From Ectocarpus siliculosus (lineage: Eukaryota; Sar; Phaeophyceae; Ectocarpales; Ectocarpaceae), in the NCBI GenBank assembly GCA_000310025.1, contig FN648593.1:65119-129118 (forward strand): DNA of 64,000 nt, in the 5' to 3' direction. A program made the position numbers and the translations under genes. Shown piece by piece: positions 1-64,000 of the stretch. The notes beneath the pieces were generated by a model. It worked only from the letters and a program-made list of their open reading frames with translations. It ran no database searches and was not told the origin of the DNA. Position 1 is the first letter of the stretch. Each line of letters opens with the position of its first letter.

Positions 1-3000
1 TCCGCCCCTGGGTCACCTCCTCCACCTCCTGCCCCCTCGTCCGCGGACAAGCACGGCTTGAGGTAGGGATTAGCATCTTCCTGACGATCAATACTCTCGG
101 TGGAGAGGATCGGCCCAACGTATTTCAAGCCGAACCGCATAAAGCTCTCGTAGAACCTGAGACACGAAACAAAGAACAAATGGCGTTTCATGTGAACGTC
201 AGTTTGTTTGACGTCACGGATTCATACAAAAATAGCTTGCGACAAACCACCAACGCGTCGACTGCCTAGAAGCAACTTCAGGGGACGCCGAAAATGCGGG
301 AAAATGATTTAAAAGGCTGGAAACGCGTCGGGAACAAAATAGACGAGAGTGTTAGACGTTCGGCAGAGCTTGCACGTCCAATGAGCGCTTATCGGCCTGA
401 CTAATTGCCGACAGTACACCATTGGAGATAGGAATAGAAGAAAACGCTCAAGACAACAAAACCCTCAGCCCCATAGAGCTTCGTTCACATGTCAACAAAG
501 CCAACGTACATGTCGCTGATGACGTCCAAGTTTTTTCACCGCCGCCGCCCTTTGCAGCGAACGCCTTCTCGAAAAGAGCCTCGCACACGAGGAAGGTACG
601 GCAATACCGTCGTGGTCGGGGTCGCTCTTGTTACCGCAGTGTAGCCTGTAGTTCCCATCCTCGTCTTGATATCCGTGAGGACATACTGCTCGAGCACCTT
701 CGAACGATGCCAATCCATACCGTGAAGGGGGGGGGAGTGGTGCTAAGCGGGCAAGGGGCTGGATAGATGGATGCACCAGAGCAAGGGTGACAGTAGATGG
801 CCTGGAATTTGCGCCGGAAACAGCAAGCAGGAGGGCAAACAGGATATGAGCTATCCTCGCTGTAAAGACGTGCATGGGGATAAATAAGTTCAAGCGTCAT
901 AACCACAGGGATCCGGCGTAAACATTTCAAGGACAACAATTCTTCGTCCCCGGCGCTGTTGCTTGGCATCATGAGATGTTGGCCAATTGCACACTATCGG
1001 TTCACCTTGCGACGTCCCTTTGTCTTGCACTATAGGCTAACGCTACAACATGTGAGACCCTCAAACCAACAGCAGTACCGGTGCGCGTGCGTCAAAATTC
1101 TCTACTCCTTCCACAAGCAATGCATCGCGAGGAATAATTGCCTGCAGGTCCCCCCGTCCCTTCCCTCTATTGTATGCATGCGCTTTGGTTGAGTCTCATA
1201 AATGAACGAATGAACATTTCTCGAAAGAAGGTACTCCATCGTTCCCTCCGTTCAAACTCAAATAGGAGCGATTTACTCAAACCTTGAGTGGAGCTATGCC
1301 GGAGTGATCGACGATGTTATGCACGACTCTAACAGCAGGTGCCGTAGCAGACCTTCATCGGTTCTCGGTGGACAGAGGCGTCGCGGGTCGGACATGAACT
1401 TTCCATCATACTCTGTTTTTCAAATCACTGGGCACCATTTCTGAACAAAATCTCGCATTTACTCCGGAGAGTTCACTTAACCCGACCGTACCTGAGCGTA
1501 CCTGAGCTATGGGGTGGTGCGCTTGCATCGGTGGACCTGATTGAAGGTCACGCTCTGCATGGCCTCTTCCTCTGACACGGGAATGCCGTGGTTGGCTGTC
1601 CCTAGAACCAAGCCCACTCATGGCGGTATCCGCCTACATAGTACGATATAAGGGGGGGGGGGAGGGAGAGTGGGTGAGACGCAATATATGAAGACGCACA
1701 TGCATATCCCTTCGCTCTGCCATGCATACTACTGGTGACCTCTTCCTTTCGCATCAGTGGCGCGGCATGGGGGACCCGCTGCGACCGCCTTTTCTTAGTT
1801 AGTTGTTGTTGTTGTTGTCTTGACATCGAAAGAAAAAAGCTGTCCGATCTCTGACACGCCATACTTCTCAGGAGTTTACTCGGTATTAGGTATTCTACGG
1901 CCAATAATGTTTTCAAAGGGGTACATCAAAATCCCGGATGAAAAATAAGAGAAAAAAAGGGTGGTGGGAAGAAAAAATAATGGCGCAGAGAAGAATCGAA
2001 TCCACTGATCTCACAACACAGCAGTTGCATTAGATGTCACGCCCCCTGGACCAATTTCCAAAGCCTGATTATTCCACACCAGGAGGAGTGGCGAGGCCGG
2101 AAATGGCTGCATTGGAACTGTCTCGTGGAGAGCTGTTCGAAAAAGTATTGTTTGATTTTCGGAATTGTCTTCGTCGTGGAACATGATAGGTTGAAACTTG
2201 GTCGAGGGGGTGTGGTATCTTGTGCAACCTACGGTTGGTTACTGTTAATTCTTGCTTTCAACACGATATATTTTGAATGTAAAACAATTGGGTGTTACGA
2301 GCGCCGGACGTTGGTTGAAGCATGTGGACGGTCGACGCGGTCGATGCTATGCATGTGTGTGGACAGGTCAGATACAGCAGACATGCGGTGTTGTTACTGT
2401 TTCGTACGTGCTGTTGAAGAAAACGAGCGCCCCCCGAAAAACAAAAAAACCGTTGAAAATAACGAAGTGCCTACCCACACTCCAAAAAGCTCTTGTGTGA
2501 GGCTGGGCGCTTACTGACGCCTCCGGGATAATCTCCGCTCTGTACATGGTGAGGAAGAGCCGCATACACGCAGTAGGTCGAGAGCCGGTGGGTGTGCAGG
2601 ACCAACTGCTGGTGTCTGGGCGTACTTGCATCTACAGCACGTGGAGACTTCGCACCCTTCCCAACGGGGACATATGCATAGGGATACACAACTACACAAC
2701 ACACAATATCCCCTCAATTCATCCTTCTATTGCTACCATCCAGATGTAGCTGGAGGGGAATAGCTTACCTAGTCAGCAACTGCTGCCGGAATGTCGCTCT
2801 CTCTTCTCCACGCGCGCCGTGTAGAAGCTCGTGTTGCCGCTCTACAGCAGCAGTGTCGTGCGGCGGGTTTAGCTCGCGGTGGTTGCTGTGCCCCGAGTCC
2901 GAGCATCTAGAGATAGCATAGCTGTTTGCCTTGGTTACGAAAGGAATGACACCAGCTTAGTCGCTATTCGTGTTGGCATACTGCGGCCTGTGGTCGTCTG

Positions 3001-3390
3001 TGTCAAGGCTAGCTAGATGCGTCATGCGAGGGCGATGCAGGGCCAAACAGTTGGGGGCTCGATGGTTCGGATGCCCCCCAACCCCGTCTTTCCTCTTCCC
3101 ATCTGTCTGGCGATCCATAACGATATCTGAGAGCTTGTTGTACCCTGCACCATTTAGCTGGTACACACATAGCACTTGTGGCCCCCCGCACACACTCACA
3201 CAAAAGCCCAAATTAAATAGTGTATGCGTTCGATTAGTACACATTGTGCCAACGCATCCTAGGCTCTTATATCTACATACTCTATCTGTCTTGGAGACGA
3301 ATTTGTTGCGTTTTGTCATGCCGAAAAAATAAAGAAATTGTAGTACACTGAAGCCAGTTTTCCCGGACCGTCGAACCAGCACCACAATCT
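1..3390. other. No supportable gene (intergenic or degraded repeat DNA)
   Basis: Short reading frames occur on both strands, but none shows a recognisable domain, a believable exon boundary series or biased composition. Homopolymer and low-complexity patches are scattered (poly-G near 727 and 1652, CAA/TTG runs near 1801). Noncoding or ancient repeat DNA is the default reading. Isolated small exons of an unrecognised gene cannot be excluded. Confidence 0.5.
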
Positions 3391-3572
3391 ACAGCCAGGA
3401 GGTCTGCCCTTCGGTTGTGACTGCCTCCCAACCTGTAACATCGGTGCTTTCACAACCAGGAGGTCTAGCCTAACGTTGTGGCTGCCTTCCAACCTTCCGC
3501 ATCCGTCCTTGTACAACCAAGTCGTTTGGCCAAGGTTAGGGCCACCTCCCAACCCCCCTCTACAACCTGCCC
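3391..3572. repeat. 61-bp tandem repeat, about three units
   Basis: Units begin ACA(G/A)CCAGGAGGTCT at 3391, 3452 and 3513, giving a 61-bp period. Each unit ends with a GTTGTGGCTGCCTYCCAACC-like segment. The third unit is more diverged and shortened. The array continues into CAACC-rich degenerate sequence to about 3600. It is a minisatellite with no evidence of coding. Confidence 0.7.
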
Positions 3573-22333: not shown

Positions 22334-24190
22334 GGCTAAAACTACATGGCGAAAGGTTCCGATCATCTCTGTCGGCTTAAAGCGGTCTTCTTCATAGCCA
22401 AGAAAAGCGATGCTGTGTCGTCGCTCATCAACTTCGTCCAAGGTATTTCCATTCCGCTCGGCCTGCGGGTGCAGCGTCTACACTCCAACAACGGGGGAGA
22501 ATACGTCAACAGCGATTTTTCGGCGCTACTGCAAGAGATGCGAAAAGTAGGGCTGTTGTCGTTGTAGCCGACCATAGCTCCTTCCCACGCCTTTGGCCGC
22601 ACACGCCGTAAAAAAATGGCATCGCGGAACGTGATGACCCGTTGTCTCCTCAATGAGACTGGTCTTCCCAAGCATCTGTGGGGGGAAATCGAAGCTACTT
22701 CGGTGTTCCTCATCAACCGTCTACCGCCCAAGGCACTCAAGGGGGGTACGCCGTACTTTGGAATGTTCGGCAAGCAGGCGAATCTTCCGTTCCTGCGAAT
22801 CATCGGCTCGCGCGCCTTCGTTCTAGTTGACGGTCATACTACCAAGTTGCAGCCAAAGGCGTGGGAAGGAGCTATGGTCGGCTACAACGACAACAGCCCT
22901 ACTTTTCGCATCTACGACAGGGCAACAGGGCGAATAACAAGCTCTCGCAACGTCATGTTGATGGAGCAGCCGCCTGTTCGTCTACCAATCGAAGACACAT
23001 AATCAGAGGATTTCGGACAACGACGGCATTACTCCCTTGGAGCAAGGCGACGCAGCACGCACCAACGCTCAGCGTCAAGAAGGCGGTAAGATCAGTTCTC
23101 GTCTGCGGTCGTCTGGACGAGCTCAGCTTCTGTAGCCCGATAGAAGCAACACAAGGCAAGCTAGGGTTCTGCACCAACCCAACATGGCAAGCACTCCTCA
23201 ACAAATGCTCGACTTCTACACCAAAAATATCGGCGGTCGGTATCGACAATGTTCTCCCTCCAGCCGCAGTTGACTTTCTCAACACCTTTAAGCAGTCAAT
23301 GAACTCACCGCAAGCAACTCAGTGGGAGAAAGCCATGATCAAGGCGCTCTCCAGCCTGGACGATCATGAAGTGGCTGACCTCATTCCTTCTTCTTCGGTT
23401 CTTGCCGGCTGCGCCTTCATCGGTACACGCTGGGTTTATCGAGTCAAGGCGGACGGACGTTCCAAGGCACGAGTGGTTGTTCAAGGTTGGGCTCAGTACA
23501 TGACATCGACTGCTTCACAACATTTGCACCTGTGTGCAGGATCGGAAGCCAGCGTCACTGCTTGCTATTGCTGCATTACAGGGGTGGCCTGTGATTGCTA
23601 TGGACGTTCAGACTGCATCTCTTAGTGGAAAATTGTCGGAAGACGTCTTAGCCTTCCAGGCGCCAGGGTTCGAGAAAATCGATAGCAACACTGGAAAGCC
23701 ACTTATTTGGAAGCTGAAGAAGAACCTTTATGGACTACGTCAGTCTCCAAGCGTGTGGAATCTCACGATCGACCAAGATCTCGGCCGCAAGGGGTTCACT
23801 CGCGCGGCATCCGACCCATGCATCTACACTTTAACTACCTCATGCTTACTTTTTTCGTCGACGATATCTTGCTAACTGGACCTTCACACCAAGTCCTTCA
23901 AGAAACTCGTCGTGATCTACAAGAATCGTTCGCCATGACTGTCTTGGGCAAGCAGCCCAAATCCTTATCATCGACATCAAGCAGGACCTCACCAACGGCA
24001 CCATCACACTTAGCCAGGAGAAGTATACACTTGCAACCCTGTGCACACCCCGGGTCAGGGCGGGACCTCAAGGTATCTGCTGAGGACGGCACTCTGTCGT
24101 CGAAATTACCCTTACAAAAGGCTTCATGTGCCAAGTGGTTGGCGATGGCTACGATAAACCGAACTGTGCCTTTGCCAAGACCACCATACA
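22334..24190 (+). pseudogene. Ty1/copia-type pol pseudogene (integrase to reverse transcriptase)
   Basis: In order: an integrase core piece with HSNNGGEY (the usual D of the D-N-G-G-E-Y motif is changed to N), broken by a stop near 22566; the integrase C-terminal region (22616-23002) ending K-L-Q-P-K-A-W-E-G; then reverse transcriptase pieces with RWVYRVKADG, WPVIAMDVQTASLSGKL, YGLRQSPSVW and the catalytic-site variant FFVDDILLTG; then the pre-RNase H segment NGTITLSQEKYTLATL. These lie in at least three frames with intervening stops. In intact elements this polyprotein copies and inserts the retroelement. No flanking LTRs were found. It is clearly inactive. Confidence 0.88.
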
Positions 24191-55454: not shown

Positions 55455-57378
55455 TCAAAGGTTCATGACAAAGTTGCGGTGCACTGAAAACGCCTCCTTG
55501 TGTAGTGGTTTCGTAAGAAAGTCGGCGTGCTGCAAATGCGACGGAACAAAAACGACCTTGAACTCCCCCCGGTCAACACGCTCACGAATGAAATGAATGG
55601 TGGCGGATGTCAATGTGCTTGGAGTTGGGGGTTGTGGCTGGGTTATTAGCCAAATGAAGCGCCCCGACATTGTCCTCCTTGATAACAGTGCACCCCACAT
55701 CCCCATCCGGAAAGATAAAACTCCAGAGATACCGCAAGAAAATCGCCTCCTTCATCCCATCGGCCATTGCAGCGTACTCAGCTTCCGTAGAAGACAGCGT
55801 GACGCTCTTCTGAGTCCGAGAGAAAAAAGACACGCAGGACCCCGCGCACATGACAACACCTCCCGACACAGACCGCCTGTCCGTCGCTTTGCTAGCGTAG
55901 TCCGAGTCCACGTACACCTCCAAGCTAACACCACCTACCGTACCCCGCTGAAATGTAATACCGTACGCACTCGTGAATCTAATGTACATCACAATATGCA
56001 ACGCAGCCTTCCAGTGTACGGACTTGGGCGCGTAAGAATACCGTGCAACGGCACGGACGGCGTTGAGGATGTCCGGCCGAGTTTGATTCGCAAGCCACAT
56101 CAAGTGCCCCACCAAAGAGCGAAACGGCTCTGTAACGTCAGGTTCACACGCATCAAACTCCTCAAGCTTCACGCCAACGGCCATGGGGGTTTCTTTGTTA
56201 CGGGTGACACCAAACTTCGCGACCATGGTGGTGGAATACGTCTGTTGGGAAAGCGTGATGGTTCCCTGAGCAAAATCACGAGAAAAACGAATACCAGCGT
56301 ACAAGCGAAGTTCTCCAAGGTTGGTGATGGGAACGTACTCGTTCAAGTCACTACCAAATTGCTCACACCGACTCTTCTTCCCGATGGCAAAGATGTCATC
56401 GACATGGACGACAACGACCATGGCGACAACTCCCGCTTCGATCAAGCGCATGACGCAAGCGTCGGCAGCACACTGTTCAAAACCAAGACTCGTCATGCCC
56501 CTAACCAAGTGTTTATGCCACGTGCGGGATGCTTGCTTCAAGCCATAGAGACTACGACGAAGGCGAACAATCTTACCAGAAAGAACACCGCAGCCCTGCG
56601 GCAGGCGGAGGTACACACACTCCTGCAACTCTGATTGTACAAAGGCCTGCTCCGCGTCGAAATGACATAAGTCCAAACCCAACTCACATGCAAGAGCTGC
56701 TAACAAACGGATACTAGTGACAGACGGGCACGGGTAGAAGGTCTCAAAAAAATCAATACCTTCACGTTGAACGAAACCTCGAGCCACCAACCTCGCCTTT
56801 GCACGGACAGGACGGCCATACTCGTTCCCCTTCCACGCGTAAACCCACTTGGCCGTGATCACGTTCGTTCCTCGTTGCTATTCCCCCGCTGCCATCGTCT
56901 CGAACGTCCCCGCCGCCGAAAGCCCAGCAATCTCCTTGCGCTCCGCCGCTCGCCAGATGGGATCATGCGGTCCGGCATGTGCTTGCTTGTAAGTTTCCGG
57001 AGTCTCCAAGTCGGCAACCATACCATCCGGCAACGCTGGGTCATCGATATCCGCTGTAGGGCCACTAAGAGAACGGGTCATCTGCTCATCCGCCGCCAGC
57101 AGCGCGAAAGCCCCCGGCATGCCGGTTCTGCGAGACCCCGACCTCGTGACGGCAGGCGTCACCTCGTGCTGCTGCCGGTGCATCACCCTCCGCTCGGGTG
57201 GCGCGTGGTACATGTCAGCCCAATCTAGCTCCATCGCCGCCTTCACGGGAATTTCACCTGCCGTTGCCCCCACCACCGGTGCCGCCGCTCCTGCCGCGAG
57301 GGCCTGCGCCCCGGCCGCCTCCCCCACCGTCGCCGGGGGGAAGACACTGCTGCCGGGGGCCGCCGCTCCAGCTGTAGA
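55455..57378 (-). pseudogene. Ty1/copia pol (reverse transcriptase and RNase H), 3' portion
   Basis: Running minus: an Ala/Gly-rich linker (GAQALAAG), then DPIWRAAERKEI, a stop/shift near 56878, then a long frame from 56862 with ITAKWVYAWKGNEYGRP, LVARGFVQREGIDF, YGLKQASRTW, the catalytic VHVDDIFAIG and RNase H motifs (VYVDSDYA, SSTEAEY, HIDIRHH). A final 1-nt shift near 55595 separates the end (LQHADFLTKPLHKEAF), which stops at about 55455. In intact elements these enzymes make element cDNA. Gag, protease and integrase lie beyond an LTR element inserted at 57379; the linker resumes at 63943 and runs off the window. The long intact RT frame indicates a relatively recent copy. Confidence 0.9.
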
Positions 57379-58014
57379 TGTTAAAACAGCTAAAAAGGAA
57401 AGCGCTCATACAAAGTAGACTTCTCTCACCTTTCGTAGCTGAGTACAGTTCGTGCGTAGACCTTATTCCTCGGGGCTGGGAACAGTGTGGGCAAGGTGGG
57501 AGGAGCGGGGCGCTCACCTGGATCACATGTCTCTCCCGTGATGGTCTCCACTCTCGTACGGTATCCTGGAAAACAAGGTAGCAGCTTGCTGACGACCGTC
57601 GTGCCGAATTCGACGGTCATTTACTCACCAACGGCCCACACGGAAATCACCCGTTCGCTCATGTTAACATGCATAGTGAGGCATGTGATAGACATGTTGT
57701 TAACGGGTTGACGGGTGATATATGCACTTTAACGGGCTTTATTAACTTTCATCCACATTGGGGGTGTTTAGTAAACACCGGTGGTTGTTGACAACGTTCG
57801 TGAGAACGTGTCGCGAAGGGACAAGTTGAAGTTGTCCTCTTCTTCGTAGATGCGGCATATCCGCCGCCTCTTCGATCACTCTAGAGGGCAAACAGGGAAG
57901 TGTTCGATACTTCGATTCCTGAATATAGCCCCCAGACCCCTAGCGCCGTAACCATCGAACAGTCACGGCCCATTATAGTATTTTGTGTAGATTCTGCGCG
58001 CAGCCGCCATAACA
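57379..58014 (-). repeat. LTR (3' LTR relative to the minus coding strand)
   Basis: TGTTAAAACAGC...CATAACA on the + strand. Near-identical to 63307-63942. Confidence 0.92.
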
Positions 58015-58021
58015 TCCCCCC
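58015..58021 (-). promoter_or_regulatory. Polypurine tract
   Basis: On the minus strand GGGGGGA directly precedes TGTTATGG, the start of the 3' LTR, as expected for the plus-strand primer. Confidence 0.6.
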
Positions 58022-58221
58022 AGCACTACGCGTATCAAGCGAAGATGCTAACGGAATGCCGGCTAGACGCCCAGAATCAAACACCTCCGAGCTGCTCTCG
58101 ACCTTCCAAAGCTGCTCTTGATTCCATCCAGCTGCTCTTGATCTTATCTTTATTTTTTATCCAGCTGCTCCTGAAAGGGTCCTTAACATCACTTGAGTCG
58201 TGACACCAAGCTCGTAGACCC

Positions 58222-59907
58222 TCATTGAGAAGATGACGCCTTGTAAAGGTCGGCCTTCATCTTCCCTCTATATACCTCGCGGCGACTAAGCTCCTCCCAA
58301 TCTCCGTCCGGATATCGCACTTTCCAATACGGTTCCCTAAAGTCATAAACCATTCCCGTCTGCTCACTAACTTGCCCTCCTCCATCAGTGAACGCCTGTC
58401 TTACCTTGGTACCCACCGGGAAATCCTTTTAGTGCTTGTTCACGAGAGGCTGCATCTCGGTCTTCTTTGCTCGGGTATTCAGGAGGTCTAGGTCGACACG
58501 TGTCATCATGATATTCTTCCCAGAGTGCGTGAAATACGTCTAACTGAAGAGAGGTAAAGCTATTGTAAGCCTCTTCCTCATTAATCCACTCTGACTCACG
58601 ACCGTCCTGATATCGGCCACGATACTCCCAACACCAAACCCGATCGTTCTTCCATAAGACCCGGCGATCTAACAAGGTGAAGAGAGGGCAGGCAGCCACA
58701 GACACATCGGGTAAACCCAAGTCTGCGCCCCAAGCCCAATGAGCAAACTCATCTTCAAAACCGTGGCGCAATTCTTTAGGGCGCAGGTGAAATAACTTAA
58801 CACTTGCTCCAGAAACCACTCTTCTTCGGATTCGGCGCCCATTCAGTCGAACTCTAATGCTTTGTCCTAACCTAGTTACTTCGGTTACTATCCAAGGTGC
58901 AGTATAATGATCCTGGATCAGTTTAGGATGCAGGCCTTGCGAACTCAAAGAACTGTCAGCTTCCAAACCATCACTAAATTCCCTTCTTTAACCCGATTAC
59001 CAGCCGAGGCTCGTTGGATGGCCGCATTGGCGGTCCCTCTTTGTTTGTTTTTTTGAGCTTGTCGCTTTTCTAAGGCATTTCGAACCTCCACAAAGGATTG
59101 ATGTTTCTCCGCGACGTAACTATCCATACCACCTCTAAATTCGGTTCCATCAATGTGTCGAGTCATCGAATCTAAAGGTGTACGGGGAGTGCGTCCAAAC
59201 AAAATACTGAAAGGGGTTGGGTTCCCAGGTAACGTAGGATCTGGGGTCACCCTCTGGATCCAACAAGCGGGCAAAACATAATGATCCCATCGAAGGGGCC
59301 AAGATTGGCAAAGAATAGACAAAACTTCTTGAAACCATCCCCCCATCCGTTCTGCCGCTCCTTGACTTCGCGAGAAATCTGCCGGACCATGATCAAGCGT
59401 AACATTTAACCATTTGCATAAATGATTGACCACCGTAGCCGTAAATTCCCCCCCAGCATCACTTCGGATCGAAACGGGTACGCCAAAAGTCAGCATTAAC
59501 TCCAACAGTTTCTTGCTCACCTCTAGCGCCTCCTTCGAAGGTAAAGGATAACCGAAAATAAATTTACTAGCTCTGTCTACAACCACCAGCAAATATCGAT
59601 TTCCTGCCGCCGATACCTGATGAAGATCCTGAATGTCCATCTCCAACACTTCCCAAGGATTCAAAAACCTAGCGGGAAGCATGTATACCTTCCTGCTCAT
59701 AGCTCTTTTCCGCCGGCGACATCCACAAGATAGGACATACTCACGAACATCCCGTTTTAATGTCGCCCAACTAAATTTCGCCATGACAAGCAAAGTAGTT
59801 CGTGCTACCCCCGGATGTCCATAAGTAGTGTGGATCAACGACATAACTCTCGATACTAACGAACGAGGAATAGCTAGCGTAGGTTCCGCCCCTTTAGAAT
59901 AATGCCA
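58222..59907 (-). pseudogene. Ty3-type integrase with chromo/Tudor-like C-terminal extension (frameshifted)
   Basis: From the stop near 59908 the minus frame resumes as the pre-integrase linker (LAIPRSLVSRVMSLIH), then the H-H-C-C zinc region (HTTYGHPG, about 30 residues, C-G-C). The catalytic core follows: EMDIQDLH, RSDAGGEF and GAAERMGGWFQEVL supply the D, D and E. A 1-nt shift at about 58960 leads into the C-terminal SH3-like domain (IQDHYTAPWIVTEV, then FHLRPKEL). Next comes a region resembling a degenerate chromodomain (RYQDGRESEWINEEEAYNSF) and, after another shift near 58400, a Tudor/agenet-like motif (REPYWKVRYPDGDWEELS). Integrase inserts cDNA; such C-terminal readers usually steer insertion to chromatin. 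The catalytic residues are intact but the frame is broken at two or three points. Confidence 0.8.
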
Positions 59908-61392
59908 TCATATGCCCTCATCGTCAGTGATAAAGTCTCCAATGGCTGTTCCTTCAGGTGATAGCTGTGACTTCAAGAAAGGATCAGCCCGTTGTTGATT
60001 CAAGATAAACTTAACATCCTTAAGTAACCGCAGGGTCTCGCTTACCAAAGAAGATTTGCATTCAACCGTATTCAACGGAGGGGAAATCGTGGGAGGTGCC
60101 GGTCTCGTTTGAGACGTGGGTTCCGGAAGGATTGGAGAAGATACAGGTTCTTGGGTGGTAGTCTCCCCCTTCTCCTCCTCTACTGCTGGTGGAGATTGAA
60201 CAAACTCAGGCGCATGTTGAACACTCTCGACCACTCTCGTTCTCCTAGTAGCGCTCCGGGTTACAGAAGGGGTGACTTCTAAAGCGGCCAACCCTTCGGT
60301 AATATAATCTAACGAATTCTCAAGTTCCTGGAAGAACCCTTGAAATTTCAAGCCCAAGAGAACCTCCCTCATCATAGGTGGAAGGGAATAGTTAGACAAT
60401 ATATTAGCGGCTGCTCCCCGGCTAAGAGCTCTCGGGATAACAAAATCACGTTTCGAAGTAAGAATCTGCTTAAAGTCCTCCAACTCTAACTCAACCGCTT
60501 CTTTGATATCACCAGAATCCGCTTTATGAGCTTGATAATCTTCAGGCAAAGGTATCGTCCCCATTATATGACCCCTTGAGATGGCCAGGGTGGGTTCCCC
60601 AAAAGAGAAAATGTGGCGTTCTCCTTTTTTCCTCTCTAAAAAGTAAGTTCCAGATTTGTTCAAGAACTCACCCAAAGAAGGAGTCGCTCCACCTCCACCT
60701 CTCTCGACGATTTTTTTCCAAGCCTTCAACCTTTCTCTTGATCGAGGAAACCTTCCTCTCTTAACCAACGAAATGTAAGTTCTTCTCCGTCCCGATGGAA
60801 TATTTACTTGAATAGCTCTCAAATCCACTGACTCCACATAGTATGCTTGAGACGCAATCGGGTATATTTCTTGTGTCCATCCATGTTCTAGAAGCCATAA
60901 ACGGACCTGCGCATTCAATTACTATTATCTCAGCTGTCGTCCTCAATAACGTGTCCATGATTAACCTGACTTGATTTATATCACATCCTTTTTCCACGTT
61001 GCATACAACTACCTCCGGGTGAACCTCTTGCAAAAGTTGGATGCACAGCGGTTCTCCTGGAAATGATCGTAACAATCTAGGACGTCCATCACCTGGATTA
61101 AATCTTGCACACTCTAAGCCTCTTCTGCTTCTATAGCAACCTTCACGTCTAGAATGCTTTCTGCGGCTAGGATATTACCTCCCCCCCCGCAGCAGAGCAC
61201 GACCGCGCCAGGTTGATATTCAAAGAGATGTGGCGGTGCTTGATATGACTCATCGAGCAACTGAGCATCTATCATATCTGTCTCCAACAGCGCCGCAATA
61301 GTTGTTGTACTCAACAACGACTGATCGTTTACTGATCCGTCCTGATACGAGATGTCTTCCACCCCTAAATCCTTCAATAAAATGCCATCCAA
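59908..61392 (-). pseudogene. C5-cytosine-methyltransferase-like domain in the LTR element (frameshifted)
   Basis: The frame from 61392 has GAVVLCCGGGGN followed by DVKVAIEAEEA. This fits motif I of C5-DNA methyltransferases (F-x-G-x-G-G plus the acidic SAM-ribose residue). After a stop/shift near 61115 the next frame gives PEVVVCNVEKGCD at the position of motif IV, then TLLRTTAEIIVIE, where motif VI (E-N-V) should be. After another shift, from 60918: a GxGY-like LLEHGWTQEIYPI and NIPSGRRRTYISL, matching motif VIII (Q-x-R-x-R). The catalytic P-C is not conserved (G-C instead), so activity is doubtful. The rest, to 59908, is Ser/Pro/Glu-rich and then a typical pre-integrase segment. The order and spacing of motifs I, IV, VI and VIII support the assignment; similarity is weak and was judged by eye. 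Confidence 0.5.
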
Positions 61393-61468
61393 AAAAATAG
61401 TATCCCTTTTTTACTTACTACCCCGATGTTCCAATTTTTTTCTGTGTTACTACTACAGCAGGCGAACC

Positions 61469-62038
61469 CTAATCAAATTCTTCTGGCCACGTCACAGCTA
61501 GCGACGGACAATACTCCCAAGATTCTTCCAACAAAGGAATAAATTTCTCAATATTGTCAACCCCCGACAGACAGTCCACAAACCTCCAGTACAATGCTTC
61601 AAATGCTTCCTGTTGCTCAACTGTCGCCTGTGGGTTCCCTTGAGGGAGCACCATAGAGGGGCTCTCTGCAGCTACCGACGGAGAAAAACCTTCTACTGAC
61701 GACGTGCTCGAAACTATCTCAAGGGACGGCAAAGACAGTGGGCTCGGCAACAATAGAGTTTCCGACAATCCGTGCTCTTGTACAATCTGAAGATCTGGCA
61801 TGTCATTGAAGAAATGGTCCGCCTCAACAGGGTGATCATCGTCATGATCCGACTCGAGTGCCGGATCGTCTGGAGGGACTGTAGTATCTTGGTGTAGCTG
61901 GAGTTCAAGATCGAGCAAGCTGGGACCATCTTGGGACGGCATCACGACCGCTACAGAGCTGTAAATATAAAAAAACATAGATATAGCGCGAGGATACAAA
62001 GTGTTTTCGTCAAGTTCGTGTGTGTACTTACCTTGCAT
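61469..62038 (-). CDS. Acidic protein of unknown function in the LTR element
   Basis: The likely start is ATG at 61942 (MPSQDGPSLLDLEL), giving about 157 residues. A donor/acceptor-like pair (ATGCAAG|GTAAGT near 62030 and TATATTTACAG near 61960) suggests an intron in its leader. The protein is rich in Asp, Glu, Ser and Pro, with a C-terminal helix-like segment (EQQEAFEALYWRFVDCLSG). It occupies the gag position but has no CCHC knuckle or known capsid motif. Stops follow before the methyltransferase-like frame. Confidence 0.45.
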   Translation of the reverse strand: MQGKYTHELDENTLYPRAISMFFYIYSSVAVVMPSQDGPSLLDLELQLHQDTTVPPDDPALESDHDDDHPVEADHFFNDMPDLQIVQEHGLSETLLLPSPLSLPSLEIVSSTSSVEGFSPSVAAESPSMVLPQGNPQATVEQQEAFEALYWRFVDCLSGVDNIEKFIPLLEESWEYCPSLAVTWPEEFD

Positions 62039-63288
62039 GCGTCACATCAAAAAGAAAGCTGCGCACCCCGCCACCCAGATGAAACACAGAGTATTTTTCT
62101 TTTCAAGTTTCTCCCACATCACCGACATTAAAGCGATATGTGGTCAATGCGACTACAGACCAGCGTACGGCGATGCTCACTAGCCACCATCACACTAAGA
62201 TTCGAAGCAGTGACCTCAGCCTTCGCGTGCGATCCAAGGTAAAACCAGCAGTTAACATGATGATGTACTATCAGTTGAAGGTCCACAGATTCCCGGGCAT
62301 TCCCGGGCAATTACTGGTACAATTACCCGTCCAACGATGCCGTTTGCTCATATCGTCCAACGTGAATACTCAGCCTAATCCCAACGGCCTGAGATTTTAC
62401 TAACACTCATCCCCATGATATCGCTGTATGAGCCGTATGGTCCACCGCTCTTGTCAGCATGAACGGCGCCATTTCAACCCACCGGAGAAAAAAGAATTCT
62501 ATCCGACCGAAAATTTTTCTTTTATCTTGGATTGTGTGTGTATCGAATTCTCAACGGCTGTAACCTAACGCGTGTGTTACTTCAACGGCTACTTCGTAGT
62601 AAAAGTTCACTTCAGTCCTACTGTAATCATGCTTGTACTAACCCACAGCTACCTTTATTTGTCATTCGGGGCCTGATCGCCCTACTTGAAAGCCGGTAAG
62701 AAGAGCTGTTCACCAATGTCGTTCACGATGCTTGTACAACCAACCATGTTATTCAATACCATGAATTTTCGGCGCTCCCCAAAATAAATCTACCGAAATT
62801 TTTCTGGTGGAATTTTTGGCGCTGAAACGTTTGTGTATCTTGTGTTCAGCTAGTAGACACCTCCTTCCTATATGTCACTCGTTCTGTCTTCTCGACGATA
62901 CATCACTACCTCGTTACCCGTACAGTTTGCTCAGTTGACCTTGGCTACCTGTAACCTGCTCGCTTCCAACGATAGCTGATGATTGATGATCCATGGAAAG
63001 CTGCCCGGTACACGAATTTTTTTTGTTGTCTTCCGGCACTATTTTTGTCTCCGCCGCTGTCGGAACCGACTCTAGTAGGCTCTCTTCTCTTCCTCCTCCT
63101 GACAGTCCGCGTTATCCCACTGATATAAGCTGCCCTGCTTTTGACCCCCTAGAAAGTCGCGCCATCACTGGAGTTAGATCCAATCTCCCAAAAAGCGCGC
63201 GTTCGATCCCTCAATACATAAAATCACAAATCACCGAGCCGATGGCTGATTTTTGCACCACCAGCACCGGGTCATCATGTGCTACGCA
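62039..63288. other. Leader region of the LTR element; no supportable gene
   Basis: Between the primer site and the first recognisable frame there are only short frames. No gag capsid or zinc knuckle is seen. A duplicated ATTCCCGGGC motif occurs at about 62291-62308. Confidence 0.45.
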
Positions 63289-63306
63289 TTCTCCCCGGCC
63301 TCACCA
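63289..63306 (-). promoter_or_regulatory. Putative primer-binding site
   Basis: On the minus strand TGGTGAGGCCGGGGAGAA directly follows the CA end of the 5' LTR. TGG start and position fit pairing with a tRNA 3' end (...CCTCACCA). The tRNA identity was not determined. Confidence 0.6.
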
Positions 63307-63942
63307 TGTTAAAACAGCTAAAAAGGAAAGCGCTCATACAAAGTAGACTTCTCTCACCTTTCGTAGCTGAGTACAGTTCGTGCGTAGACCTTATTCCTCG
63401 GGGCTGGGAACAGTGTGGGCAAGGTGGGAGGAGCGGGGCGCTCACCTGGATCACATGTCTCTCCCGTGATGGTCTCCACTCTCGTACGGTATCTGGGAAA
63501 ACAAGGTAGCAGCTTGCTGACGACCGTCGTGCCGAATTCGACGGTCATTTACTCACCAACGGCCCACACGGAAATCACCCGTTCGCTCATGTTAACATGC
63601 ATAGTGAGGCATGTGATAGACATGTTGTTAACGGGTTGACGGGTGATATATGCACTTTAACGGGCTTTATTAACTTTCATCCACATTGGGGGTGTTTAGT
63701 AAACACCGGTGGTTGTTGACAACGTTCGTGAGAACGTGTCGCGAAGGGACAAGTTGAAGTTGTCCTCTTCTTCGTAGATGCGGCATATCCGCCGCCTCTT
63801 CGATCACTCTAGAGGGCAAACAGGGAAGTGTTCGACACTTCGATTCCTGAATATAGCCCCCAGACCCCTAGCGCCGTAACCATCGAACAGTCACGGCCCA
63901 TTATAGTATTTTGTGAAGATTCTGCGCGCAGCCGCCATAACA
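63307..63942 (-). repeat. LTR (5' LTR relative to the minus coding strand)
   Basis: Near-identical partner of 57379-58014. The differences seen are in a CCTGG/CTGGG pair, GATAC/GACAC and TGTAG/TGAAG. Confidence 0.92.
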
Positions 63943-64000
63943 CAGATGCTACCGCCGATGCCGCCGCTCCTGCCGCGAGGGCCTGCGCCCCGGCCGTCTT
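63943..64000 (-). pseudogene. Continuation of the interrupted copia linker
   Basis: CCGCTCCTGCCGCGAGGGCC-type Ala/Gly-rich sequence (minus: GAQALAAG) continues the frame broken at 57379. The rest of the copia element lies beyond the window end. Confidence 0.75.

What the first reader, a model, noticed from the sequence alone, without database searches (positions are those of the whole stretch)
57379..63942. Very young LTR element that pairs a C5-methyltransferase-like domain with an integrase and lacks reverse transcriptase
The LTRs differ at about four of 636 positions and a near-perfect 4-bp duplication flanks it, so it moved recently. Yet the interior has an integrase with intact D,D,E but no RT/RNase H motif. 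Where RT should be there is a frameshifted region with ordered motifs I, IV, VI and VIII of C5-cytosine methyltransferases. Methyltransferase capture by LTR retrotransposons has been reported in a few other eukaryotes. A methyltransferase-plus-integrase element without RT would be a distinct, trans-mobilised arrangement. Brown algae such as Ectocarpus are reported to have little or no cytosine methylation, which makes this stranger.
Basis: partly seen in the sequence, partly recalled or inferred. Interest (0 to 1): 0.85.

Follow-up and report, generated by a model that had tools for sequence, protein, structure and literature searches.

The report
Gypsy retrotransposons carrying a decayed methyltransferase
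A young jumping gene in what looks like a brown alga is an internally deleted copy of a larger family whose polyprotein carries a DNA-methyltransferase-derived domain between RNase H and integrase; this is odd because brown algae are reported to lack DNA methyltransferases, and the domain is kept although its usual catalytic motif is gone.

Summary
Window 57379-63942 is a minus-strand LTR element: 4 LTR mismatches in 636, TAGA/CAGA flanks, an integrase, no RT, and a frameshifted region derived from a C5-cytosine methyltransferase. The claim of a distinct RT-less arrangement fails. The same genome holds an 11.5-kb relative (C30) with a gag ORF and an unbroken 1943-aa Pol in which RT, RNase H, a methyltransferase-like domain and integrase follow in that order. 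The window copy lacks 4.95 kb of it (gag to RNase H), joined at a 4-bp overlap. Two sister copies with another shared RT-removing deletion have moved too, one with identical LTRs. The domain is real: two AF2 models give C5-type methyltransferases in all 50 listed structures, and a profile comparison exceeds 100 of 100 shuffles. It occurs in families down to 33% identity and is under purifying selection (dN/dS 0.21-0.31 in the deep pairs that could be computed). The motif IV Pro-Cys is absent in 15 of 15 copies spanning it, so I favour a non-catalytic binding module. The host looks like a brown alga whose only PF00145 gene found is DNMT2. Capture by Gypsy elements is known (KnitGypsy-Dnmt3); a conserved but catalytically degraded form here is a new variant.

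The parts
57375..57378 (.). left target-site duplication TAGA
   Evidence: empty sites
57379..58014 (-). 3' LTR (element reads on the minus strand)
58015..58021 (-). purine tract GGGGGGA directly before the 3' LTR, probable polypurine tract
   Evidence: by eye
58225..58951 (-). C-terminal Pol region after integrase, frameshifted; in the C30 relative it ends in a sub-threshold Tudor-like match
58966..59907 (-). integrase (H2C2 and rve core)
59908..60303 (-). linker between the methyltransferase-like domain and integrase; an in-frame stop separates it from the integrase frame
60304..61392 (-). C5-cytosine-methyltransferase-derived domain in three frame pieces (61123-61392, 60881-61123, 60304-60879)
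   Evidence: fold and profile of relatives
61391..61394 (.). deletion junction: 4-bp overlap of the two C30 sides (C30 776566 | 781519); gag, protease region, RT and RNase H are missing here
61469..62041 (-). 190-aa acidic ORF upstream of the lost gag; also in C30 and C3
63288..63306 (-). primer binding site: 19 nt complementary to the 3' end of a host tRNA-Trp(CCA) plus CCA
63307..63942 (-). 5' LTR
63943..63946 (.). right target-site duplication CAGA
   Evidence: empty sites

Best explanation
The window element is a non-autonomous, internally deleted copy of a Ty3/Gypsy retrotransposon family whose Pol carries, between RNase H and integrase, a domain descended from a C5-cytosine methyltransferase. 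SHOWN by sequence: the family layout; the deletion; the empty site; a 19-nt tRNA-Trp primer site and a purine tract in this copy; two RT-less sister copies that moved after their shared deletion; a C5-type methyltransferase fold in two predicted models; purifying selection; absence of the catalytic Pro-Cys. INFERRED: RT-less copies were reverse transcribed in trans by proteins of full-length relatives. INFERRED: the domain was captured once, before the present families split. INFERRED: it no longer methylates DNA and works as a nucleic-acid- (perhaps SAM-) binding part of Pol, for example holding cDNA or target DNA for the neighbouring integrase.
For: Layout: C30 has a 1943-aa open Pol with RVT_1 E 1.9e-18, RNase H 3.5e-31, integrase 4.7e-10 and a separate 733-aa ORF taken as gag by position. 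Window against C30: 97.8% over 4024 columns and 95.9% over 2567, separated by the 4952-bp deletion. Movement after deletion: C53 and C129 share one junction (also seen in the C143 fragment); C53 has 2/635 LTR mismatches with TGCA|TGCA, C129 0/635 with GCCA|GCCA. Fold: Foldseek best hit Dnmt2 6fdf E 7.8e-8; VIA 3g7u Z 14.9, rmsd 3.0, 174 aligned; second model, another family, HhaI Z 10.7, rmsd 3.8, 154 aligned; in both the 50 listed rows of 1000 chains compared are all C5-type methyltransferases. Profile: hhalign against 7 phage C5-MTases scores 47.7 (A1) and 50.6 (A4); reversed controls 14.3 and 14.9; best of 100 column shuffles 20.3 and 24.5. Selection: dN/dS 0.23 (C30-L039), 0.21 (C98-C3 and C26-C3), 0.24 (C3-C143b); against C30 the domain is below the adjacent linker in 5 of 5 copies (0.27-0.44 against 0.62-0.78). 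Motifs in A4: Pro-Cys of motif IV in 0 of 15 rows, motif VI Glu 15 of 16, motif VIII Arg 16 of 16.
Against: No member passes the PF00145 cut-off: it appears in 2 of 8 members at best E 0.046, and the six-frame PF00145 search of the genome found only the DNMT2 gene. The A1 profile found no PDB chain at E <= 10. hhalign covers only motifs VI-VIII (73 columns) and is weaker against a 3-sequence set (E 0.0011). Mean pLDDT is 51 and 55; the part with motifs I-III is poorly modelled in both. Foldseek also lists KsgA-type methyltransferases from rank 14 at E ~1e-6. In the second VIA list only 40 of 1000 chains reach Z 8. A Cys directly follows strand beta-4 (NAC) in 11 of 15 rows, so an atypical active site is not excluded. 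Recent copies give domain dN/dS up to 0.77, and the linker falls to 0.38-0.39 in two pairs. Trans mobilisation and the binding role are not shown.
Confidence: 0.68

Rival explanations
1. The domain is an active C5 DNA methyltransferase with an atypical active site that methylates the element's own cDNA, as proposed for other DNMT-bearing retrotransposons.
For: C5-type fold; GxGG and an acidic residue of motifs I-II kept in the four rows aligned; motif VI Glu 15 of 16, motif VIII Arg 16 of 16, a Cys after beta-4 in 11 of 15 rows; deep-pair dN/dS 0.21-0.31. De Mendoza et al. 2018 report activity for other retrotransposon DNMTs (PMC5890265, abstract and sections 6, 9, 11). A kelp, Saccharina, is reported to have about 1.4% methylated cytosines (PMC6916402, passages), which its authors ascribe to DNMT2.
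Against: Pro-Cys absent in 15 of 15 rows; L019 has Asp and L039 no Cys there. CpG observed/expected 0.85-1.03 in the MT-positive stretches measured (window LTR 1.07), window background 0.96; the two lowest, L005 and L006 at 0.85, also have low GpC (0.82). Brown algae are reported without DNMTs other than DNMT2 (PMC13076208, passages).
Confidence: 0.12
2. The domain binds or modifies RNA, such as the tRNA-Trp primer or element RNA, as DNMT2 does with tRNA.
For: Best Foldseek hits are Dnmt2 structures; the element has a tRNA-Trp primer site; the domain lies beside RNase H.
Against: VIA ranks bacterial DNA C5-MTases at or above Dnmt2 (several of these differences are under 1 and so ties); the Pro-Cys is missing; no RNA test was possible.
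Confidence: 0.12
3. The domain is a relic with no function, carried along in Pol.
For: A clade of related elements lacks it, so it is dispensable there; among recent copies dN/dS reaches 0.77.
Against: Deep-pair dN/dS 0.21-0.31; open through the whole domain inside long Pol frames of C30, C98 and C147.
Confidence: 0.06
4. The element is a separate MTase-plus-integrase class that never had RT and moves in trans.
For: RT-less copies with the domain have moved recently, one with identical LTRs.
Against: The parts of the five other copies that were compared (C53, C129, C17, C241, C143) align to C30, broken by deletions, one of which removes RT in whole or (C17) in part; C129 also has an insertion of about 1 kb. 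Integrase is truncated in C53, C129 and C241.
Confidence: 0.02

Closest known systems
KnitGypsy-Dnmt3 of Klebsormidium nitens (de Mendoza et al. 2018, PMC5890265; abstract and sections 6, 9, 11 read)
   Same: A C5-MTase domain inside the Pol polyprotein of a Ty3/Gypsy element, under purifying selection.
   Different: KnitGypsy keeps the functional residues, groups with Dnmt3, has DIRS-like repeat order and lives in a methylated genome (as the paper says). Here the Pro-Cys is lost, LTRs are simple, and the host looks like a brown alga.
Gypsy-10_Ec32 of Ectocarpus (Dinatale et al. 2025, PMC12477816; abstract, section 5 part 1 and passages read)
   Same: Brown-algal Gypsy with a C-terminal Tudor domain; C30 Pol ends in a sub-threshold Tudor match (PF21743 E 0.0038).
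   Different: A word search of the main text for methyltransferase and methylase shows none in a Gypsy element; the sequence could not be compared.
SymbioDIRS-Dnmt3 and SymbioLINE-Dnmt (PMC5890265)
   Same: Retrotransposons carrying C5-MTase domains.
   Different: DIRS-like and LINE classes, functional residues kept, host genome heavily methylated.
Methylase-encoding Ty3/Gypsy and DIRS elements in stramenopiles, as stated in PMC6338049 (passage)
   Different: The passage names no element, species or domain state, and does not say which of the two types occurs in stramenopiles.
DNMT3L (recalled; called catalytically inactive in an abstract listed)
   Same: A C5-MTase-fold protein kept without catalytic activity.
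   Different: A mammalian host gene that partners DNMT3A; not mobile. Analogy only.
Sola1-1_Ec32 accessory ParB-methyltransferase (PMC12477816, passage)
   Same: A methyltransferase carried by a transposon in a brown alga.
   Different: A DNA transposon; predicted N4-cytosine or N6-adenine methyltransferase, not the C5 type.

Membership tests
Ty3/Gypsy LTR retrotransposon | LTRs with TG...CA ends and short target-site duplication | tested here: met
   (one mismatch in the 4-bp duplication of this copy)
Ty3/Gypsy LTR retrotransposon | tRNA primer site and polypurine tract | tested here: met
   19-nt match to a tRNA-Trp(CCA) gene; GGGGGGA
Ty3/Gypsy LTR retrotransposon | Pol order RT-RNase H-integrase in a full member | tested here: met
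   C30, L003; the window copy itself lacks RT and RNase H
C5-cytosine methyltransferase (PF00145) | profile match above the curated cut-off | tested here: not met
   2 of 8 members at best E 0.046; not found by the six-frame PF00145 search
C5-cytosine methyltransferase (PF00145) | C5-MTase fold | tested here: met
   the 50 listed VIA rows are all C5-type for each of two models; motif IV-VIII part mostly at pLDDT 63-94 with single blocks of 45 and 58, motif I-III part low
C5-cytosine methyltransferase (PF00145) | catalytic Pro-Cys of motif IV | tested here: not met
   0 of 15 rows of A4 that span it
C5-cytosine methyltransferase (PF00145) | motif VI Glu and motif VIII Arg | tested here: met
   Glu 15 of 16 (Asp in one), Arg 16 of 16 rows; the Asn after Glu is in 1 of 16
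C5-cytosine methyltransferase (PF00145) | methylation of cytosine C5 | not testable with these tools
   needs biochemistry
KnitGypsy-Dnmt3 | DNMT-type domain in Gypsy Pol | tested here: met
KnitGypsy-Dnmt3 | conserved functional residues | tested here: not met
   motif IV Pro-Cys absent
KnitGypsy-Dnmt3 | domain groups with Dnmt3 | not tested
   identity to C5-MTases too low for a tree that I would trust
Gypsy-10_Ec32 | C-terminal Tudor domain | tested here: inconclusive
   PF21743 E 0.0038, 17.4 bits against cut-off 27.2
Gypsy-10_Ec32 | sequence identity to the published family | not testable with these tools

The most novel reading that the evidence does not exclude
In a lineage reported to have lost DNA methylation, Ty3/Gypsy elements keep a cryptic C5-MTase-derived enzyme with a rebuilt active site (NAC in place of Pro-Cys) that still modifies nucleic acid during replication, so published surveys that report only DNMT2 in brown algae would have overlooked a mobile methyltransferase below Pfam detection.
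Probability: 0.13. Interest if true: 0.85.

Novelty: new variant of a known kind. Interest (0 to 1): 0.6.

Why it matters
Brown algae are reported to have no DNA methyltransferase besides DNMT2. A C5-MTase-derived domain kept under selection in several of their retrotransposon families, and below the reach of the usual profile, suggests that mobile elements preserve parts of a lost methylation system. It also suggests that a DNMT fold can serve an LTR element without standard catalysis. Both points can be tested with one purified domain and native long reads.

Tried and rejected
Single-sequence Pfam scan of the window pieces: no hit for the methyltransferase-like pieces at E <= 10. The PF25645 viral-protein hit of one member (E 0.022, 1 of 8) was set aside as below its cut-off and unsupported by the fold. 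PDB sequence search with A1: nothing; with A4 one hit, 3qv2, a 5-cytosine DNA methyltransferase, E 0.32: weak. hhalign of A4 against 3 phage C5-MTases was weaker (probability 21, E 0.0011) than against 7. Relatives outside the host genome: viral contigs with A1 and with one family member gave none; an integrase query gave one weak locus, L062, not followed. No prokaryote collection scan ran, and other brown-algal genomes are not in the collections, so the family's spread is untested. One gain, or one gain with one loss, is open: C30 is unresolved between the MT-positive and MT-negative clades (RT+RNase H tree: 2 changes, 10% of 200 bootstrap trees with 1; integrase tree: 1 change, support 73/65, with a long-branch warning). 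L011, L017, L020 and L025-L030 were not given to the tree. Alignments do not place the beta-4 Cys on the canonical Cys consistently. Insertion age in years was not computed for want of a rate.
Full report
What is there. The window element spans 57379-63942 and reads on the minus strand. Its LTRs (57379-58014, 63307-63942) differ at 4 of 636 positions and the flanks are TAGA and CAGA. It sits inside a Ty1/Copia element: RVT_2 on 55582-56877 minus, E 4.6e-43. The flanks joined without the element match uninterrupted at 97% over bases 1-192 of 193 in five host places, and the three fetched carry the same Copia RT at 98-99%. A tandem repeat in the flank leaves open which repeat unit was hit. The copy keeps a 19-nt primer site complementary to the 3' end of a host tRNA-Trp: the 14-nt core occurs at 8 places in the genome (3 for the reversed control), and of the four loci scanned one, on C1, is a tRNA-Trp gene. 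A GGGGGGA tract precedes the 3' LTR.

Not a distinct RT-less class. The nearest integrase relative lies on C30 (99% over query 1-315). Its Pol is one open frame of 1943 aa with RT, RNase H and integrase found by Pfam, next to a 733-aa ORF that I take as gag by position (no Pfam match for it). Its LTRs at 772550 and 783427 differ at 6 of 635 positions with GTTG on both sides. Against it the window copy matches in two blocks and lacks 4952 bp between C30 776566 and 781519, with a 4-bp overlap at the join. That loss removes gag, the protease region, RT and RNase H. The domain lies between RNase H and integrase, not in the place of RT.

RT-less copies have moved. C53, C129 and the C143 fragment share another junction (776604 | 782121); C53, C129 and C241 share a deletion inside integrase (773903 | 774623). 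C53 has 2 of 635 LTR differences and TGCA|TGCA; C129 has 0 of 635 and GCCA|GCCA. Different target duplications with one shared junction mean transposition after the deletion, shown for these two; LTRs of C143 and C241 were not compared. Help in trans is inferred, since RT and part of integrase are gone. C17 has 7 of 635 differences, 18 gap columns and no matching flanks.

What the domain is. Of 49 sequences searched (48 host loci and the window part), 31 matched the domain; most loci had been chosen because they matched it or the integrase, so this is no frequency. Pfam alone is silent or weak. Alignment A1 (8 single-frame translations) gave a model of mean pLDDT 51: ten-residue blocks of 40-64 over motifs I-III and 63-84 over IV-VIII, one of 45. 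Foldseek's best hits are Dnmt2, a prophage C5-MTase and DNMT1, from E 7.8e-8, with KsgA-type enzymes from rank 14. VIA re-alignment of 1000 chains lists 50, all C5-type, Z 14.9 to 11.3. A second model from another family (A4, 19 rows; mean pLDDT 55, motif I part low) again lists 50 C5-type rows, Z 10.7 to 7.7, 40 chains at Z 8 or more. hhalign of A1 and A4 against seven phage C5-MTases scores 47.7 and 50.6; reversed controls 14.3 and 14.9; best of 100 column shuffles 20.3 and 24.5. The 73 aligned columns cover motifs VI-VIII. Motif numbering is recalled knowledge of the family.

Is it catalytic. In A4 the motif IV Pro-Cys is absent in 15 of 15 rows that span it: eleven have NAC after strand beta-4, one NAD, two CNVEKGC, one no Cys. 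Glu of motif VI is in 15 of 16 rows, Arg of motif VIII in 16 of 16. Among four representatives identical columns are spread over every segment, 12-26%, the target-recognition part included. CpG observed/expected is 0.85-1.03 in the MT-positive stretches measured (window LTR 1.07) and 0.96 in window 1-57000; the two lowest also have low GpC. I see no sign of long-term CpG methylation.

Selection and history. dN/dS of the domain is 0.23 for C30-L039 (dS 1.09), 0.24-0.31 for the other copies of that family against L039, 0.21 for C98-C3 and C26-C3 (dS 1.9) and 0.24 for C3-C143b (dS 2.79); 18 of the 21 between-family pairs are saturated at synonymous sites. Against C30 the domain gives 0.27-0.44 and the adjacent linker 0.62-0.78 in the five copies with both; integrase 0.16-0.52; RNase H 0.06-0.10. 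Among recent copies the domain reaches 0.77 and the linker falls to 0.38-0.39 in two pairs. On an RT+RNase H tree of 19 rows the MT-negative clade is firm (100/100) and the MT-positive rows need 2 changes (1 in 10% of bootstrap trees); on integrase they form one group with weak support 73/65 and a long-branch warning. One old capture, with or without one loss, fits.

Host. PF19114 (EsV-1-7), which I recall as greatly expanded in brown algae, has 150 matches over its cut-off among 150 scored of 880 candidates. The only PF00145 gene found in G000 is DNMT2; G000 may be incomplete. A 2026 study (PMC13076208, passages) reports no DNMT besides DNMT2 in brown algae, with DNMT1 in Schizocladia. Against a simple 'no methylation' picture, Saccharina is reported with about 1.4% methylated cytosines (PMC6916402, passages). 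Dinatale et al. 2025 (PMC12477816; abstract, section 5 part 1, passages) report negligible 5mC in Ectocarpus and describe Gypsy lineages with chromodomain, Tudor and NADAR domains; a word search of its main text shows no methyltransferase in Gypsy.

Literature. De Mendoza et al. 2018 (PMC5890265; abstract, sections 6, 9, 11) describe KnitGypsy-Dnmt3, so capture by a Gypsy element is known. PMC6338049 (passages) states that methylase-encoding Gypsy and DIRS elements occur in stramenopiles, without details, which narrows the novelty. My searches for a brown-algal or catalytically decayed case listed none; they cover open-licence PMC full text only.

Verdict. The interest lies in a conserved, degraded C5-MTase domain in retrotransposons of a lineage reported to lack DNA methyltransferases.

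Noticed in passing
window 55582-57405 minus and 63943-64000: The element is nested in a Ty1/Copia element (RVT_2 E 4.6e-43); a GC-rich tandem repeat lies at the insertion site. The window ends at the contig end.
   Followed up: partly
window 61469-62041 minus; G000 C30:781599-782169, C3:4271829-4272329: A 190-aa acidic ORF between the 5' LTR and gag, 97% identical in C30 and 90% in C3, no Pfam hit; function unknown.
   Followed up: partly
L003 7774-9972 minus (C30): The 733-aa ORF taken as gag has a Cys/His-rich motif near its C-terminus by eye but no Pfam match.
   Followed up: no
L008-L010 and L012-L016 (C150, C227, C141, C156, C120, C14, C16, C88): A related Gypsy clade has a short interval between RNase H and integrase (205-238 aa in the six loci measured) and no methyltransferase-like match.
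   Followed up: partly
L027 (G000 C129), about 2417-3459: The C129 copy holds about 1 kb of sequence without a match to C30 inside its 5' region.
   Followed up: no
L031 (G000 C2:8123500-8128500): Multi-exon host DNMT2 gene, the only PF00145 gene found in the assembly.
   Followed up: yes
window 22831-23625 plus: Another sub-threshold Copia RVT_2 fragment (E 0.00058).
   Followed up: no
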